The notes under the pieces are model-generated. The model was not told the DNA's origin, did no database searches, and saw only the letters and a program-made list of their open reading frames with translations. Shown in pieces: positions 33,763-49,491 of a DNA stretch of 64,000 nucleotides; the first letter of the stretch is position 1; each line of letters begins with the position of its first letter. The stretch comes from Acidobacteriota bacterium (lineage in GTDB: Bacteria; Acidobacteriota; Terriglobia; Acidiferrales; UBA7541): the NCBI GenBank assembly GCA_003223215.1, contig QHYH01000085.1, positions 1-64,000 of the forward strand, given 5' to 3'. A program made the position numbers and the translations under genes.

Positions 33763-34959
33763 ATGACGAAGCTCACCATCAACGACCTCGACCTCAAAGG
33801 CAAACGCGTCTTCATCCGCGTCGACTTCAACGTTCCCCTCAAGGACGCGATCGTCACCGATGACACGCGCATCCGCGAAACCCTCCCCACGCTGCGCCTC
33901 GCTATCCAAAAGGGTGCGCGCCTCGTTCTCGCTTCGCATCTTGGCCGTCCCAAGGGTGGTCCCGATCCGAAATATTCTCTGCGGCCCGCCGCCAAGAAGC
34001 TGGAAGAACTCCTCGGCAAGCCCGTGGCTTTTGCCCTGGATTGCGTCGGTCCCGGCGCGGAAGGGCAGAGCAAAGCCCTGCGCGATGGCGAAGTGTTGGT
34101 GCTCGAAAACGTCCGCTTTCATCCCGAAGAAGAAAAAAACGATGAAGGTTTTTCCAAACAGCTTTCCTCTCTCTGTGACGGCGTGTTCGTTTGCGACGCT
34201 TTCGGCTCGGCGCATCGCGCGCACGCCTCCGTGGTCGGCATCACCCGCTTTGTCCAGCAGGCCGCCGCCGGGCTGCTCATGGAAAGAGAGCTGGCCTATC
34301 TCGGCAAAGCTGTCATGAATCCCACACGTCCCTTTGTCGCGATCTTGGGGGGCGCGAAAGTCAGTGACAAGATTGAAGTGGTCGAAAATCTCATGAAGAT
34401 TGCCGACGTTATGCTCATCGGTGGCGGCATGGCCTACACCTTCCTAAAAGCCGAGGGTCAGCCCATCGGCAAGTCCCTGGTGGAGGACGACAAGCTCGAT
34501 CTCGCCCGCCGGCTTCGTTCCGAAGCCCAGCAAAAGAAATTCGCGCTGCTTCTTCCCGTCGATCATGTGGTCGGCGCGGAATTGAAAGCCGATACGGCCA
34601 CAAAAATCGTTGCTCTTTCCGCCACACCTGATGGCTGGATGGGCTTGGACGTCGGACCGAAGACCATCGAAACGTATAAGCAGAAAATTGCCGGAGCCAA
34701 GACGATCGTGTGGAATGGCCCCATGGGTGTTTTCGAGATGCCCGCTTTTGCCAGGGGCACGCTCGAAATTGCCAAGGCCGTGGCCGACGCGACCAGCAGG
34801 GGCGCCACTTCCATCGTCGGCGGCGGCGATTCCGTCGCTGCCGTGCATCAATCGGGCGTGGCCAACAAAATTTCGCACATCTCCACCGGTGGAGGCGCAT
34901 CGCTCGAGTTTCTCGGCGGCCATAAGCTTCCCGGCGTCGAAGCCCTCACCAACAAATAA
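33763..34959 (+). CDS. pgk: Phosphoglycerate kinase
   Basis: A protein of 398 residues, the standard length. N-domain substrate residues appear in [12 protein letters not shown] and [20 protein letters not shown]. The family-specific [10 protein letters not shown] and [16 protein letters not shown] follow, then the nucleotide domain [19 protein letters not shown] and [16 protein letters not shown]. Makes ATP and 3-phosphoglycerate. It lies 135 bases after gap, with only a weak ribosome binding site, so expression may need a separate promoter or read-through from gap. Confidence 0.97.
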
Positions 34960-35149
34960 ATGAGCGCCATCCTTCTCTGCGAGTCCTCTGCGTGCTGTGC
35001 CTTTCCGCGTTCGCTTTGCCTTGAGGTTTGCATCCGCCTTCGCGCAATCGCCTCTCCCGTGCGTCATTCCGGAAAGTTCGGTGGTTTTTTGCAGGAACGA
35101 CGCGGAGTCAATGGATGCTTACTTTGAGTAGCTTGGGATGGAGAACGCC

Positions 35150-35908
35150 ATGACGCGTCGTCACGTGATTGCCGGCAACTGGAAAATGTTCAAGACGCAA
35201 GCGGAAACGCACGCGTTCTTCTCGGCGTTTCGACCGCTCGTCTCGAGCGCGAAGCATTGCGACATTGTCATCGCTCCGCCTTTCACAGCACTTCCCGCCG
35301 CTGTTGAAGCCGCCAAAAACACGAACATCGCCATCTCCGCGCAAGATGTCCACTGGGAAAAAGAGGGGGCCTTCACCGGCGAAATCTCCACCAATATGCT
35401 TGTCGAAGCCGGCTGCCGGTACGTCATCATCGGCCACTCCGAGCGCCGGCAATTTTTTGGCGAAACCGACGAGTCCGTGGCTAAGAAAACCAAAGCAGCT
35501 CTCACCGCGGGACTCATTCCCATCGTTTGTGTCGGCGAAACCTTGGTCGAGCGTGAATCCGGTCAAACTCATCAGGTTTGCAAGAGGCAATTCCTCGGCG
35601 GCCTGGGCGCGTTGACCCCGGAGGAGTTCTCTCGTATGCTGATAGCTTACGAGCCAGTATGGGCCATTGGGACGGGCCGCACCGCTACACCTGAAATGGC
35701 CGCCGATGTTCACCGATTTCTTCGCCAGTGCGCGGCGGAGAAATTCTCCGCCGCTCATGCCTCCGATTTGCGCATTCTCTACGGTGGCAGCGTGAAGCCG
35801 GACAATATTCGCGGACTGATGGCGCAGGAAGAACTGGACGGTGCGTTGGTGGGCGGAGCGAGTCTCGACGCAAAATCGCTTGCGACCATCGTCGAAGCTT
35901 CCCGGTAG
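35150..35908 (+). CDS. tpiA: Triosephosphate isomerase
   Basis: A protein of 252 residues. Landmarks are AGNWKMFKT with the catalytic Lys, IIGHSERRQFFGETDE with His96, the AYEPVWAIGTGRTAT block with catalytic Glu168 and flexible loop, and LYGGSVKPDN with the phosphate loop. Two starts are possible, ATG 35138 and ATG 35150. I prefer the second, which has GGAGA correctly spaced. Situated 190 bases after pgk. Confidence 0.95.
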   Translation: MTRRHVIAGNWKMFKTQAETHAFFSAFRPLVSSAKHCDIVIAPPFTALPAAVEAAKNTNIAISAQDVHWEKEGAFTGEISTNMLVEAGCRYVIIGHSERRQFFGETDESVAKKTKAALTAGLIPIVCVGETLVERESGQTHQVCKRQFLGGLGALTPEEFSRMLIAYEPVWAIGTGRTATPEMAADVHRFLRQCAAEKFSAAHASDLRILYGGSVKPDNIRGLMAQEELDGALVGGASLDAKSLATIVEASR

Positions 35909-35982
35909 CAGGCCACAAATTGGCGTCTGGAGAGATTCGAGCTGTCGGTCCCGAAATACTTGGGGTTCGTTAGGAGATAGAA

Positions 35983-36582
35983 ATGCCTTCTTGGATGAAA
36001 TGGGCCGTCGCGTTGGCCATCGGATTCGCGATCATCGGGATTGGCTTCCGCCTCTCCTGGGGCGGCACCTGGATCCTGAAACCCTTCTTTATTCTGAACT
36101 GCCTTGTTCTTGTGGTTGTGGTGCTGCTGCAGAGCGGCAAAGCCGCAGACCTTGCGGGCGCTTTTGGCGGCGCGGGCAGTCAAACGGCTTTCGGCCCGCG
36201 CGGTGCGGCAAACGTTCTCTCCAAAGCTACCACCTGGTGCGCGGTCATGTTCATGGTTTGCTCCTTCGCCATGGTGGTGCGCACGGACAAGGCGGTCGAG
36301 GAAGGCGGTTCGATCCTTCAGAAGGTTTCTCAGCCAGCGCCAAAACCGGCTCCGGTGACGACTCCGGTTACACCGCAGCCGAGTACGCATAACCCGTTGC
36401 CGACCGGTCAGCAAACTCAGCCGCCCGCCTCGCAAGCTCCGGCAAACCCGCAGCCTCCGGCGGCAACGTCCAAGCCGGCACAGACTCCGCCAGCTTCGTC
36501 TTCGGCACCAGCTAGTTCGAAGCCAGCCGAGCAAACTCCCACGAGTCCGCCGTCTGCCCCTGCGCCAACGAAAAAACCGTAG
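35983..36582 (+). CDS. secG: Preprotein translocase subunit SecG, extended at both ends
   Basis: The SecG core (residues about 32-105) is clear: LKPFFILNCLVLVVVVLLQSGKAADLAGAFGG followed by GSQTAFGPRGAANVLSKATTW and a second helix. SecG supports SecYEG-dependent export at the inner membrane. Two oddities are visible. There is an additional N-terminal hydrophobic segment (MKWAVALAIGFAIIGIGFRL) beginning at ATG 35983, which has a good AGGAGATAGAA site. There is also a C-terminal tail of about 90 residues rich in Pro, Ala, Ser, Thr and Gln. Typical SecG is 75-120 residues. The tpiA-secG adjacency is common in bacteria. Confidence 0.88.
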   Translation: MPSWMKWAVALAIGFAIIGIGFRLSWGGTWILKPFFILNCLVLVVVVLLQSGKAADLAGAFGGAGSQTAFGPRGAANVLSKATTWCAVMFMVCSFAMVVRTDKAVEEGGSILQKVSQPAPKPAPVTTPVTPQPSTHNPLPTGQQTQPPASQAPANPQPPAATSKPAQTPPASSSAPASSKPAEQTPTSPPSAPAPTKKP

Positions 36583-45746: not shown

Positions 45747-47435
45747 ATGGTCATCCACGACAGCGGCGGAAATCACCCGGAAAAGCCGCGGGAGAGCTTC
45801 ATCTCCCGCTACCTCTTTAGCACCGATCACAAGACCATTGGCTTGCAGTACCTTTGGCTGGCGCTCTTGAGCGTTTTTGTGGGCATGGCCATGTCGCTGG
45901 TCATGCGCATCCATTTGGCCTGGCCCGAGATGCACATCCCTTTTCTTTCCGCTCTTGGCAGCTCGCCGGAACGCTACGCCACGCTGCCGGTGCTGCACGG
46001 GTCGCTGATGGTTTTCCTGGTCCTGACGGCGGCGCCGCAGTTGGGGTTCGGGAATTATTTTCTTCCACTGCAGATCGGCGCGCGCGAAATGGCCTTTCCC
46101 GGGCTTAATCTTTTTTCCTTGTGGACCACGGTGGTCTCGCTGTTCGGCATAACCAGCGCGTTTTTGATTGCCCCGCAGGCGGGAATCACTCTCTGGATCG
46201 TCAGCGTGTCTGTTTTTTGTGCCGCGACTCTCTCGAGCGCCCTCAATTTTACCGTCACGACCATCGACCTGCGCGCGAAGGGAATGACGCTTCCACGTCT
46301 GCCCCTGACCGTGTGGGCTTGGTTTATCAACGCCATCCTGGGCATGCTCGTTTTCAGCATTCTTCTTGCTGCGTGCCTGTGCCTGCTTTCGGATCGCTTT
46401 TTCAGCACCCATTTCTTCTCCGCCGTAGATTTCCCAGCCTCGCCACCGGCGAACGTCGCGCCCGGTGCGTCGCCGGTGCTTTGGCAACGCTTGTTTTGGT
46501 TCTTTGCTCAGGCGGAAGTCTACATTGCGATGCTCCCGTGCTTCGGCATCGTTTCCCACCTAATCGCCACATTTTCTCGTAGGCCGGTTTGGAGAGAGCG
46601 CCTTGTCGTGCTTGCGCTTTGCGGGGTGGGCCTGGTGGGGTTCTGCGTTTGGGGCCAGCACATGTTTTCGAGCGGCCTGAATCCTTTCTCGCCACTGGTG
46701 TTCTCGGTCCTTGCCGCCTCTCTGGGGTTGCCGGCGACGATCCTGCTAGTCAGCTGGTTTGCCGCGCTTTGGAACGCGCGCTTCCAATTGAACACTTCTT
46801 TGCTGTTTGCTCTCGGCTTTGTTTCGCTCTTTCTCTCCGGCGGGATTTCCGGGCTATTTCTCGCACGGCACGATTTCACTTCCGCTTCCGTCACGGAAGA
46901 TTTTGTGACCGGGCATTTTCATCTGGTCATGGGTGTGGCCGCGACGTTTGCCATTCTCGCGGCGCTGTTTTTCTGGTTTCCGAAACTGTTCGGGCGCCGG
47001 CTGAACGAGCCCTTAGGCAAGCTGCATTTCTGGCTGACGTTCGCGGGCGTCTACGCCGTCTTCATGCCCATGCACTGGCTGGGGTTGGGCTCGCATGTGG
47101 CCAACAATCCTGGCGCGAACCTCGCCGCGATTCGCTCGTGGATTGGTCCCGCGCGCTCGTTTATCACTGCCGGCATCGTCATCACGGTTTTTGCGCAGGC
47201 GGTCTTTTTGTTCAATTTTCTCTGGAGCTTGTTTTTCGGTGACAGAGTCGAAGAGCACAACCCTTGGCGAGCTACCACACTTGAATGGAGCATGGCATCA
47301 CCGCCGCCCCGGCACGATTTTGGCGCACCTGGGCCAGTGGTTTATCGCGGAGCTTACGCGTTTGCTGTGCCAGGGGTAGCGCAAGATTATATTCCCCAGC
47401 ACGTTGCCCCGGATCGCGTGGTCAAGGCAAACTAG
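45747..47435 (+). CDS. Divergent haem-copper oxidase subunit I lacking CuB ligands
   Basis: 562 residues from ATG 45747 (no strong ribosome site; the frame is open from 45555). Overall similarity to cytochrome c oxidase subunit I is strong: STDHKTIGLQYLWLALLSVF, NYFLPLQIGAREMAFPGLN, FGIVSHLIATFSRRPVW and the C-terminal NPWRATTLEW. The haem ligands are present: His84 in VLHGSLM, and His390 and His392 in VTGHFHLVM. The CuB site is not. Canonical H-P-E-V-Y is Q-A-E-V-Y (Gln255), and canonical W-x-H-H-M-F is VWGQHMF (Gln304, with His305 kept). The K-channel PTGIK is PATIL, and the M-P-R-R propionate pair reads SHVANN. The loop with WTxYPP is shortened. Twelve membrane helices seem intact. I doubt that it reduces oxygen in the normal way. 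Confidence 0.88.
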   Translation: MVIHDSGGNHPEKPRESFISRYLFSTDHKTIGLQYLWLALLSVFVGMAMSLVMRIHLAWPEMHIPFLSALGSSPERYATLPVLHGSLMVFLVLTAAPQLGFGNYFLPLQIGAREMAFPGLNLFSLWTTVVSLFGITSAFLIAPQAGITLWIVSVSVFCAATLSSALNFTVTTIDLRAKGMTLPRLPLTVWAWFINAILGMLVFSILLAACLCLLSDRFFSTHFFSAVDFPASPPANVAPGASPVLWQRLFWFFAQAEVYIAMLPCFGIVSHLIATFSRRPVWRERLVVLALCGVGLVGFCVWGQHMFSSGLNPFSPLVFSVLAASLGLPATILLVSWFAALWNARFQLNTSLLFALGFVSLFLSGGISGLFLARHDFTSASVTEDFVTGHFHLVMGVAATFAILAALFFWFPKLFGRRLNEPLGKLHFWLTFAGVYAVFMPMHWLGLGSHVANNPGANLAAIRSWIGPARSFITAGIVITVFAQAVFLFNFLWSLFFGDRVEEHNPWRATTLEWSMASPPPRHDFGAPGPVVYRGAYAFAVPGVAQDYIPQHVAPDRVVKAN

Positions 47436-47467: not shown

Positions 47468-48148
47468 ATGCCGGGTGCGACGGCAACTCCGGACGTTGAA
47501 GTCATCGTCGAAGATGCCCGCGGGGGCGGTGGCGGCGGGGGAAGACCGCCGGACGGCGGTGATGGCGGTGACGATGGCGATTACGGCAAGGGCTGGCAGA
47601 GGGAGCCACCTTCGCCGCGGCGATTCTCGACGGGAATCGCTATTGCCATGGTCTCTATCCTGATGTTTTTCATGGCGCTGGCGAGCGCTTTTCTTCTTCT
47701 TCACCACAGCAGCCGCGTGTGGGTCGCAGTGCACCTGCCACGGATCCTCTGGGCGAACACCGCCGTCCTCATGGGAAGCGGCTTCGTTCTCGAGCGATCG
47801 CGGTTACGGCTGTCAAATGGAGATGCGCGCGGCTTTCGCAAGCTGTGGTTAGTGGCCACGGTAATGGGGCTCCTTTTTGTAGCCGGACAACTTGTTGCCT
47901 GGCGCCAGCTTGTGGCCGAGGGTGTGTACATTGCGAGCGACCAGGCCAGCAGCTTCTTCTACATTTTCACCGGCGCGCATGGCGTGCATTTGCTCGGTGG
48001 CGTGGCGGCGCTGCTGTTTGTTTTGCTGCGCAATTTTGAAAAGTCGCAAATCTCGATGTCACTGGCGGCGGAAATCACTTCCTACTATTGGCATTTCATG
48101 GATGGTTTGTGGATTTTCCTGTTCGCGCTTTTGTATCTTGGCAGATAG
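47468..48148 (+). CDS. Cytochrome c oxidase subunit III-like protein
   Basis: 226 residues from ATG 47468. The N-terminal 55 residues are a hydrophilic, Gly/Asp-rich arm (GGGGGGGRPPDGGDGG), and five membrane helices follow. Subunit III landmarks are LASAFLLLHHSSRVW, PRILWANTAVLMGSGFVLER, FFYIFTGAHGVHLLGGVAAL and EITSYYWHFMDGLWIFLFAL. The late His and Asp positions of the family are kept. It lies 32 bases after the subunit I-like gene and is almost certainly co-transcribed. No subunit II (CuA) or assembly gene follows; the next gene is on the other strand. Confidence 0.87.
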   Translation: MPGATATPDVEVIVEDARGGGGGGGRPPDGGDGGDDGDYGKGWQREPPSPRRFSTGIAIAMVSILMFFMALASAFLLLHHSSRVWVAVHLPRILWANTAVLMGSGFVLERSRLRLSNGDARGFRKLWLVATVMGLLFVAGQLVAWRQLVAEGVYIASDQASSFFYIFTGAHGVHLLGGVAALLFVLLRNFEKSQISMSLAAEITSYYWHFMDGLWIFLFALLYLGR

Positions 48149-48181: not shown

Positions 48182-49321
48182 TTAGCATTTCACAAATGCA
48201 GCGATGGCATCCACCACGCGCGCGATCTGATCCTTTCGCAACTCCGCATACATGGGCAGGGAGAGAACTTCTTGCGCAGCTCGTTCCGCGTGCGGGAAGT
48301 CGCCGAGCGTGTGCCCCAGCGGCGCGTACAGCGGCTGCAGATGCAGTGGATGCGGATAGTAGACAGCACTGGCAATCTTTCGCGCAGCCAAGTGCTGCTG
48401 CAGCGCGTCGCGTTGCTCGCTTCGAATGGTGTATTGGTGGTAGACGTGTTCGAAGCCCTGTGGCTCGAGAGGCGTCATGATGCCGGGAATTTGCTGCAAG
48501 AGACGCGTGTATTCGGCGGCATTTGAACGGCGGGCGTGCTGCCATCCGGCAAGGTGGCGCAGTTTGACCCGCAGTATGGCGGCTTGAAGCTCGTCGAGGC
48601 GGCTGTTCCAGCCCGGCTCGCTGCTGCGATATTTGGCGGTTTGGCCGTGATTCCGAAGTATGCGAACACGGGCGGCGATTTCCGGTGAATTGCAGACCAC
48701 CATGCCTGCATCGCCGTACGCACCAAGGTTTTTTGTGGGGTAAAAACTGAGGCAGGCCGCGTCGCCGAAAGAACCGACGCGGCTTCCTTTATAAAGGGCG
48801 CCAATGGCCTGCGCGCAATCTTCGATGAGCGGCAGCTTGCGCGACTTAGCGAAAGCCGCGATGGGATCCATGTCCGCGGCGAGACCATAGAGATGCACGG
48901 CAATGATGGCGCGGGTGCGCGACGTCACACGGCGCTCGAGTTCCGAAGGATCGAGGTTGTAAGTTTCCGGGCGAATGTCGGCAAAAACCGGCTTTGCTCC
49001 CAATGCGCTTACGGCGCTGCCTGTGGCGACAAACGTAGATGTGGGCAAGAGTACTTCGTCGCCTGCCTCGACACCACAAGCGCGCAAGGCGAGAATGAGC
49101 GCGTCGGTGCCGGAAGCGACTCCCGCGCCGTGAGCCACGCCACAGAGCAGGGCAATTTCTCCCTCGAGCGCCGCGCCTTCGCGTCCGAGCACAAACTGCT
49201 GGGAAGACAGCACGCGTTCGATGGCGGTGCGAATCTCTGCGCCAATCGTCGCATATTGGACGGACAAATCAAATTGCGGAATGGGCTCGGGCGCAGCATT
49301 GGCTTGCGGGTGCGTGCTCAT
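48182..49321 (-). CDS. DegT/DnrJ/EryC1/StrS-family sugar aminotransferase
   Basis: 379 residues from ATG 49321 (the longer open frame to 49777 adds non-homologous sequence). PLP-enzyme motifs are [69 protein letters not shown], and [17 protein letters not shown] with the Schiff-base Lys. The family aminates keto-sugar nucleotides for O-antigen, capsule or antibiotic sugars. No other sugar-nucleotide gene adjoins. Divergent from the class I aminotransferase gene. Confidence 0.9.
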
Positions 49322-49491
49322 CGGTTCATTCGCGCGCCCTTTAGTATACGCGAGCGCGAGGCGCTGCGGCTTTGCAGCTTGGGTGGATATAATGCCTGCC
49401 GAAGATAGGCCAGCGGCACGAACGTGGCGAGCGACCGCCCCGAAGCGCTGGGCATAGGAGTGGGGAGACAGAGAAAGAGGGCTAGACGAAC

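What the first reader, a model, noticed from the sequence alone, without database searches (positions are those of the whole stretch)
45747..47435. Haem-copper oxidase subunit I in which two CuB histidines are glutamine
Seen: the segment corresponding to H-P-E-V-Y reads Q-A-E-V-Y (codon 46509-46511) and that corresponding to W-x-H-H-M-F reads W-G-Q-H-M-F (codon 46656-46658). The three haem-ligand histidines remain. The K-channel lysine motif, the M-P-R-R propionate pair and the WTxYPP loop are also gone. Established: in A-type oxidases all three CuB histidines are needed for oxygen reduction, and some NO-reductase-like branches have altered metal-site ligands. Inference: this is a di-haem membrane protein with another role, such as electron transfer, NO chemistry or haem sensing. 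The full-length frame, intact helices and conserved flanking residues argue against simple decay.
Basis: partly seen in the sequence, partly recalled or inferred. Interest (0 to 1): 0.8.

Follow-up and report, generated by a model that had tools for sequence, protein, structure and literature searches.

The report
Oxidase subunit without its copper site
Soil bacteria of one Acidobacteria group have kept a former oxygen-breathing enzyme subunit that lost two of the three copper-holding histidines and its usual electron-input partner but still keeps its haem-holding residues, so it probably does something other than breathe oxygen.

Summary
Window 45747-47435 encodes an A-type haem-copper oxidase subunit I with Gln at two CuB positions. 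One CuB His (H309) and the three haem-ligand His remain. A subunit III gene follows (47468-48148); no subunit II gene lies nearby. Homologues occur in 27 of 36 genomes of the same genus (Acidobacteria gp2 / Candidatus Acidiferrum). First position: Gln 26, Leu 1. Second: Gln 18, Glu 4, Tyr 4, Leu 1. They form one clade; normal-motif relatives are at most about 50% identical. dN/dS is 0.09-0.15, against 0.00-0.05 for the ordinary oxidase.

New here: the pair lies between pgk-tpi-secG and a DegT gene, where sister genera carry a full coxII-I-IIIa-IIIb operon with intact CuB motifs. It looks like an ancestral oxidase dismantled in place. Five genus genomes retain only subunit III. Losses include CuB ligands, the K channel and outer loops that face subunit II. 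Haem ligands, the Glu286/Tyr288 equivalents and most D-channel positions stay.

Best reading: a non-respiratory haem protein (I+III), probably gas-binding or accessory. Haem content and function are inferred. Slow decay is the main rival.

The parts
45747..47435 (+). CuB-less haem-copper oxidase subunit I (562 aa; 12 long helical segments in the model, by my grouping)
   Evidence: (Pfam COX1 323 bits)
45996..45998 (+). H88, low-spin haem ligand, kept
46086..46088 (+). E118 at the D-channel entrance Asp position (Glu 25, Asp 1 of 26 readable copies)
46509..46511 (+). Q259, replaces the CuB His of HPEVY
46515..46523 (+). E261-V-Y263, Glu and cross-link Tyr of HPEVY, kept
46656..46658 (+). Q308, replaces the first His of the CuB His pair
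46659..46661 (+). H309, second His of the CuB pair, kept
46743..46745 (+). L337, replaces the K-channel Lys
46914..46922 (+). H394-F-H396, high-spin and low-spin haem ligands, kept
47103..47108 (+). positions 457-458, haem-propionate / docking region (Arg and Tyr in canonical), lost
47468..48148 (+). subunit III (COX3) partner gene, co-conserved
33763..36429 (+). pgk, tpi and secG matches, upstream synteny landmark only (9.3 kb of other genes lie between secG and subunit I in this window)
48182..49333 (-). DegT-type aminotransferase, downstream synteny landmark only

Best explanation
The pair is a former A-type cytochrome c oxidase converted in place into a non-respiratory haem protein. Shown: sister genera carry a full coxII-I-IIIa-IIIb operon at the pgk-tpi-secG / DegT locus, where this genus has only I and III. 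Subunit I has lost two CuB His, the K-channel Lys and much of its outer-loop identity, while the haem-ligand His, Glu261, Tyr263, His309 and most D-channel positions stayed under purifying selection. Inferred: it still binds a low-spin and a high-spin haem but no CuB, and gets no electrons through CuA, so it cannot reduce O2 to water. Inferred, weakly: the high-spin haem, facing Q259/H309/Y263 and reached through the subunit I-III interface, binds a small gas (O2 or NO), and the I-III complex works as an accessory, buffer or sensor beside the genome's ordinary oxidases.
For: 27 of 36 genus genomes have it; Gln at the first site in 26 of 27 and His309 in 27 of 27. One clade, SH-aLRT 100, 25 rows. 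dN/dS 0.09-0.15 in 13 pairs. Subunit III directly downstream in 25 of 26 public loci, the exception ending at a contig edge. Only three subunit II matches in the 97.65% complete genome, all elsewhere. Sister genera carry the intact operon at the same place. Mean retention of canonical-invariant residues is 0.39 in outer loops (17 columns) and 0.83 in inner loops (18 columns) (Mann-Whitney p 0.003, chosen after seeing the data). AF2 model pLDDT 82.1; best Foldseek match R. sphaeroides aa3 subunit I, TM 0.78/0.82. Subunit III lies on a proposed O2 path to haem a3 in bovine enzyme (start of the abstract of PMC12275195, seen in the listings).
Against: No direct evidence of haem content, expression or function. 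Position 308 varies (Gln, Glu, Tyr, Leu), so the distal pocket is not fixed. Subunit I is missing in five genomes that keep subunit III, on two to three separate branches, and four further genus genomes showed neither, so it is dispensable. Its dN is 3-5 times that of the ordinary oxidase in eight of ten paired comparisons and more in the other two. One homologue (G012) has an in-frame stop. Over whole inner and outer halves the losses do not differ (Fisher p 0.45).
Confidence: 0.5

Rival explanations
1. A slowly decaying relic: after another oxidase took over, the old operon is being dismantled gene by gene and has no present role.
For: Subunit I missing in G002, G007, G010, G021 and G033 while subunit III stays; four further genus genomes with neither gene found, three of them under 90% complete; in-frame stop in the G012 copy; faster evolution than the ordinary oxidase.
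Against: dN/dS about 0.1 in 13 pairs with dS from 0.26 to 1.22; H394, H396, Tyr263 and His309 in 27 of 27, H88 in 26 of 26 readable, Glu261 in 26 of 27; full-length frames outside G012 and the gapped G029 copy; new residues fixed in 25 of 25 rows (E288, R252, A258, A327).
Confidence: 0.27
2. Catalytic without outside electrons: a lone-haem gas chemistry such as NO or peroxide dismutation, parallel to the putative NO dismutase, which arose from quinol NO reductase by losing one metal His and the electron entry.
For: Same pattern of losses, metal ligand plus electron entry (PMC3413370, passages read). A distal His and Gln beside a free high-spin haem could suit such chemistry (inference).
Against: The putative NO dismutase keeps all but one His and is thought to keep a metal; here two of three metal His are lost. 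Position 308 is variable.
Confidence: 0.1
3. A still catalytic oxidase in which other residues hold a metal at the B site (H309 with Q259, Q/E/Y308 or the clade's Cys 296/304).
For: C296 is present in 27 of 27 and C304 in 26 of 27, on the same helix as Q308/H309.
Against: No subunit II gene beside it, no K-channel Lys, Leu at 259 or 308 in single homologues; no precedent in the paper searches listed in Tried and rejected.
Confidence: 0.08
4. Subunit III is the functional part and subunit I only a scaffold or leftover; subunit III serves another oxidase.
For: Five genomes keep an orphan subunit III; dN/dS 0.15 and 0.11 in the two orphan pairs tested. Subunit III dN/dS (0.07-0.28, 13 pairs) overlaps that of canonical IIIa (0.05-0.14, 10 pairs), unlike subunit I.
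Against: Where both are present, subunit I has the lower dN/dS in 8 of 13 pairs.
Confidence: 0.05

Closest known systems
A-type cytochrome c oxidase subunit I of the same family (coxII-I-IIIa-IIIb, e.g. G036, G162, G137, G077)
   Same: Fold, about 50% identity (G036), gene position, haem ligands, Glu and Tyr of HPEVY, subunit IIIa partner
   Different: Here two CuB His, K-channel Lys, Mg-site His/Asp, Arg pair, WTxYPP loop, subunit II and IIIb are missing
Putative NO dismutase (NOD, qNOR branch, Candidatus Methylomirabilis oxyfera)
   Same: Superfamily member that lost a metal-ligand His and its electron-entry site but is conserved (PMC3413370, passages)
   Different: Other branch, one His lost not two, different replacing residue; its activity was a proposal in the passages read
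eNOR and other NO reductases of the superfamily
   Same: Altered active-site residues in a haem-copper fold
   Different: Their diagnostic change is at the Tyr position, which is Tyr here; their second subunit has no counterpart gene here (PMC8756737, passages)
Nitrospina fused cbb3-like oxidase
   Same: Unusual substitutions near CuB (PMC3578206, passages)
   Different: The change reported there is at the Trp near CuB; no loss of a CuB His is reported in the passages read

Membership tests
Haem-copper oxidase superfamily fold (Pfam COX1) | COX1 profile and fold | tested here: met
   323 bits against cut-off 34.8; Foldseek TM 0.78/0.82 to R. sphaeroides subunit I
Haem-copper oxidase, functional | Histidine sextet (three metal-B, three haem His; stated in PMC3413370) | tested here: not met
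   Four of six; two CuB His are Gln
A-type O2 reductase | K-channel Lys | tested here: not met
   Leu in 27 of 27; some CuB-intact relatives (L065-L070, L184) also lack it
A-type O2 reductase | D-channel Asp/Asn and Glu286 equivalents | tested here: inconclusive
   Asp position is Glu in 25 of 26 readable; N107 in 25 of 26, N125 in 24 of 26, E261 in 26 of 27; proton conduction untested
A-type O2 reductase | Subunit II with CuA encoded with it | tested here: not met
   No PF00116 match on this contig; three elsewhere in the genome. Sharing a subunit II in trans is not excluded
A-type O2 reductase | TIGR02891 CtaD curated cut-off | tested here: inconclusive
   418.8 against 670.75; all 25 members of A1 match below E 0.001; but two intact relatives also fall below the cut-off (615 and 616.7)
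NO reductases (cNOR, qNOR, eNOR, sNOR, gNOR) | Non-Tyr residue at the active-site position | tested here: not met
   Tyr263 in 27 of 27; table read
NO dismutase | One metal His to Asn, qNOR ancestry | tested here: not met
   Two His replaced, mostly by Gln; closest to A-type oxidases; no NOD sequence was aligned, comparison from the passages
Any haem protein | Bound haem | not testable with these tools
   Only ligand conservation is seen

The most novel reading that the evidence does not exclude
A haem-copper oxidase remade as a copper-free, electron-donor-free gas-handling haem complex (I+III): either a membrane O2/NO sensor or buffer, or a lone-haem dismutase, with genomes of one family preserving the steps from full oxidase to I+III to III alone.
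Probability: 0.2. Interest if true: 0.85.

Novelty: new variant of a known kind. Interest (0 to 1): 0.62.

Why it matters
The histidine sextet is described as the signature of the whole superfamily (PMC3413370). A conserved branch that drops two of its CuB ligands but keeps the haem ligands and part of the D channel is a natural test of which parts serve chemistry and which serve proton or gas movement. It also warns that counts of coxI as evidence of aerobic respiration in soil metagenomes can include copies that probably do not respire: profile searches match this protein to the ordinary COX1 and CtaD families.

Tried and rejected
Sequencing or assembly error: rejected, 27 genomes from several studies. 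One record of the clade (L055) is titled Betaproteobacteria; its genome is placed in the same genus here (G006), and I took the title as a mislabel.

Spread beyond the genus: a degenerate FAQx(E/D)VY pattern in 399 genomes of the class matched 57 genomes. In 25 of the genus genomes the match lies in this gene. Of the other matches, eight loci from six genomes outside the genus were fetched and read; none is a subunit I. The rest were not read. G028 (Leu) and G029 (gap) are missed by the pattern. The one genome-contig scan used two short motifs, so a distant CuB-less family elsewhere would be missed. The viral collection, the phage, plasmid and E. coli records and the metagenomes were not searched.

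First AF2 model with 25 rows: poor (pLDDT 57.6), not used.

Exact place of the clade in the subunit I tree: not settled. In one search four constrained groupings were not rejected (p-AU 0.11-0.30). In one search it joins G137 and G077 with SH-aLRT 81; a clade of it with all 11 rows that I had labelled sister was rejected (p-AU 0.005), since those rows are scattered. Synteny and the subunit III tree carry the argument. The trees were quick searches without bootstrap.

Idea that losses are on the outer half only: not supported as such (Fisher p 0.45). The outer loops stand out (p 0.003), but that contrast was chosen after seeing the data, columns are not independent and helix ends come from the model.

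Rows dropped: L022/L049 (G012, truncated and with a stop) and L073 (taken to be G029 from matching coordinates, with unread letters) were left out and the subunit I trees, but are in the counts. The 21 intact rows include two records of one G042 gene (L036 and L177).

Paper searches showed no report of such a protein in their listings; the library lacks most subscription papers.

Full report
What is there. The window belongs to an 8.8 Mb draft genome; its closest named relatives are Acidobacteria gp2 and Candidatus Acidiferrum assemblies. ATG 45747 to TAG 47435 encodes a COX1 protein. Gln replaces His at codons 46509-46511 and 46656-46658, seen directly against solved COX1 sequences. Residue numbers are those of P0001 (first codon 45735). 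H309, the second His of the pair, and the haem ligands H88, H394 and H396 are kept. A subunit III gene starts at 47468, 32 bases after the stop codon.

Conservation. A search of 61 genomes found orthologues in 27 of the 36 genomes of the genus, own genome and one gapped copy (G029) included. Site 259 is Gln in 26 of 27 and Leu in G028. Site 308 is Gln 18, Glu 4, Tyr 4, Leu 1 of 27. H309, H394, H396 and Tyr263 are present in 27 of 27, H88 in the 26 copies readable there, Glu261 in 26 of 27 with Asp in G029. The scan of the GTDB contig collection gave 65 loci: 26 of this group and 39 others. Of the 39, all keep both His of the pair, 38 keep the first CuB His and one is unreadable there. The 25 full rows form one clade with SH-aLRT 100 and a stem of 0.97 changes per column.

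Selection. In 13 pairs the subunit I dN/dS was 0.09-0.15. For ten of these the ordinary oxidase of the same genomes was measured too: 0.00-0.05. Subunit III gave 0.07-0.28 in 13 pairs, against 0.05-0.14 for canonical IIIa in ten. So subunit I is under clear but weaker constraint than the ordinary oxidase. These are rough Nei-Gojobori values and synonymous change is high in many pairs (dS 0.26-1.22).

What was lost and kept. Against 21 intact rows (20 genes), 202 columns are invariant; 185 of these fall in the span that was scored by membrane side. Those changed in at least 90% of the 25 CuB-less rows include both CuB His, the Pro beside the first, K337 and its neighbours S334, T338, F339 and N340 (K channel), D382 and H386 (propionate/Mg region) and R457/Y458. 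Retention averages 0.39 in the outer loops (17 columns) and 0.83 in the inner loops (18 columns; p 0.003, post hoc), with no significant difference between outer and inner halves as a whole. The WTxYPP loop is deleted. From established knowledge these parts serve CuB, the K channel and the face towards subunit II. The genome has three subunit II matches, none on this contig. Cys occur at 296 (27 of 27), 304 and 269 (26 of 27 each).

Origin. In G036, G162, G117, G070 and G091, other genera of the family, a coxII-I-IIIa-IIIb operon with normal HPEVY/HHMF lies downstream of secG (with tpi or pgk in four), and in G036, G162, G137 and G077 the DegT gene lies on its other side; 7 of 12 examined operons of the family and order show at least one of the two flanks, five show neither within the stretch fetched. 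In the window pgk, tpi and secG lie at 33763-36429, 9.3 kb upstream, and DegT lies directly downstream. Among the 26 public loci secG lies upstream in 17 and DegT downstream in 19 (inverted in one); several of the rest end at contig edges. In L059-L061 secG is within 0.5 kb of subunit I. So the CuB-less pair occupies the place of the full operon. The subunit III tree agrees: the group joins canonical IIIa of G036, G040, G042 and L062, SH-aLRT 93. A subunit I tree with sister operons places the clade with G137 and G077, SH-aLRT 81. An earlier tree without most of them left the place open.

Further dismantling. In G010, G033 and G021 the same place reads pgk-tpi-secG-III-DegT without subunit I. 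G002 and G007 also carry the orthologous subunit III without a recognisable subunit I beside it, though in G002 only about 0.2 kb of contig lies upstream. G005, G009, G015 and G025 showed neither; three of these are under 90% complete. On the tree the five orphans fall in three places, two of them well supported, so subunit I was lost two or three times if it was ancestral. The G012 copy carries an in-frame stop near residue 430.

Structure. With 53 rows AF2 gave pLDDT 82.1 and pTM 0.86. The best match is R. sphaeroides aa3 subunit I. Cofactors are not modelled, so this shows the fold, not the haems.

Mechanism. Shown: replacement of two CuB ligands, absence of the coded electron-entry subunit at the locus, loss of the K-channel Lys, with haem ligands retained under selection. 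Inferred with good support: no O2 reduction to water. Inferred with moderate support: two haems are bound. Inferred weakly: gas binding in an accessory, buffering or sensing role. Retention of subunit III, which an abstract places on a proposed O2 path to haem a3 (PMC12275195, listings), and of Glu261 fits gas access or proton movement but proves neither. The nearest conceptual parallel is the putative NO dismutase, which also lost a metal His and its electron entry (PMC3413370, passages read).

Literature. PMC3578206 (passages) states that in all members copper is held by three His. PMC8756737 (passages) gives the active-site residue by family. PMC8239418 and PMC5900883 (passages) cover haem A oxidases and acidobacterial oxidases, and the passages I saw mention no such protein. 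The listings of the searches named in Tried and rejected showed no report of this branch.

Verdict. Observation confirmed; interpretation partly supported; a new variant of a known kind with a well documented origin and an untested function.

Noticed in passing
L152 8291-8971, L153 9070-9861, L154 1657-2316: Orphan subunit III genes at the same locus without any subunit I beside them; dN/dS 0.15 and 0.11 in the two orphan pairs tested. Partner unknown.
   Followed up: partly
window P0001 residues 269, 296, 304: Cysteines conserved in the CuB-less clade, two of them on the helix of the former His pair; could be a new metal or redox site or only packing.
   Followed up: no
L065-L070, L184 subunit I: Acidobacterial oxidases with normal CuB motifs but no Lys at the usual K-channel place, and mostly an altered Asp in the HDTYF motif.
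   Followed up: no
L171, L172, L173: Oxidase subunit I of other genera in the family with HHQF instead of HHMF and an altered K-channel segment, with a subunit II match before it and two subunit III-like matches after it.
   Followed up: no
L022 / L049 (G012): In-frame stop inside the CuB-less subunit I near residue 430, at a contig edge; perhaps ongoing loss or an error.
   Followed up: no
L004/L006, G000:C166:15596-16887: Own-genome A-type subunit I whose profile match is split over two frames, so possibly a frameshifted copy.
   Followed up: no
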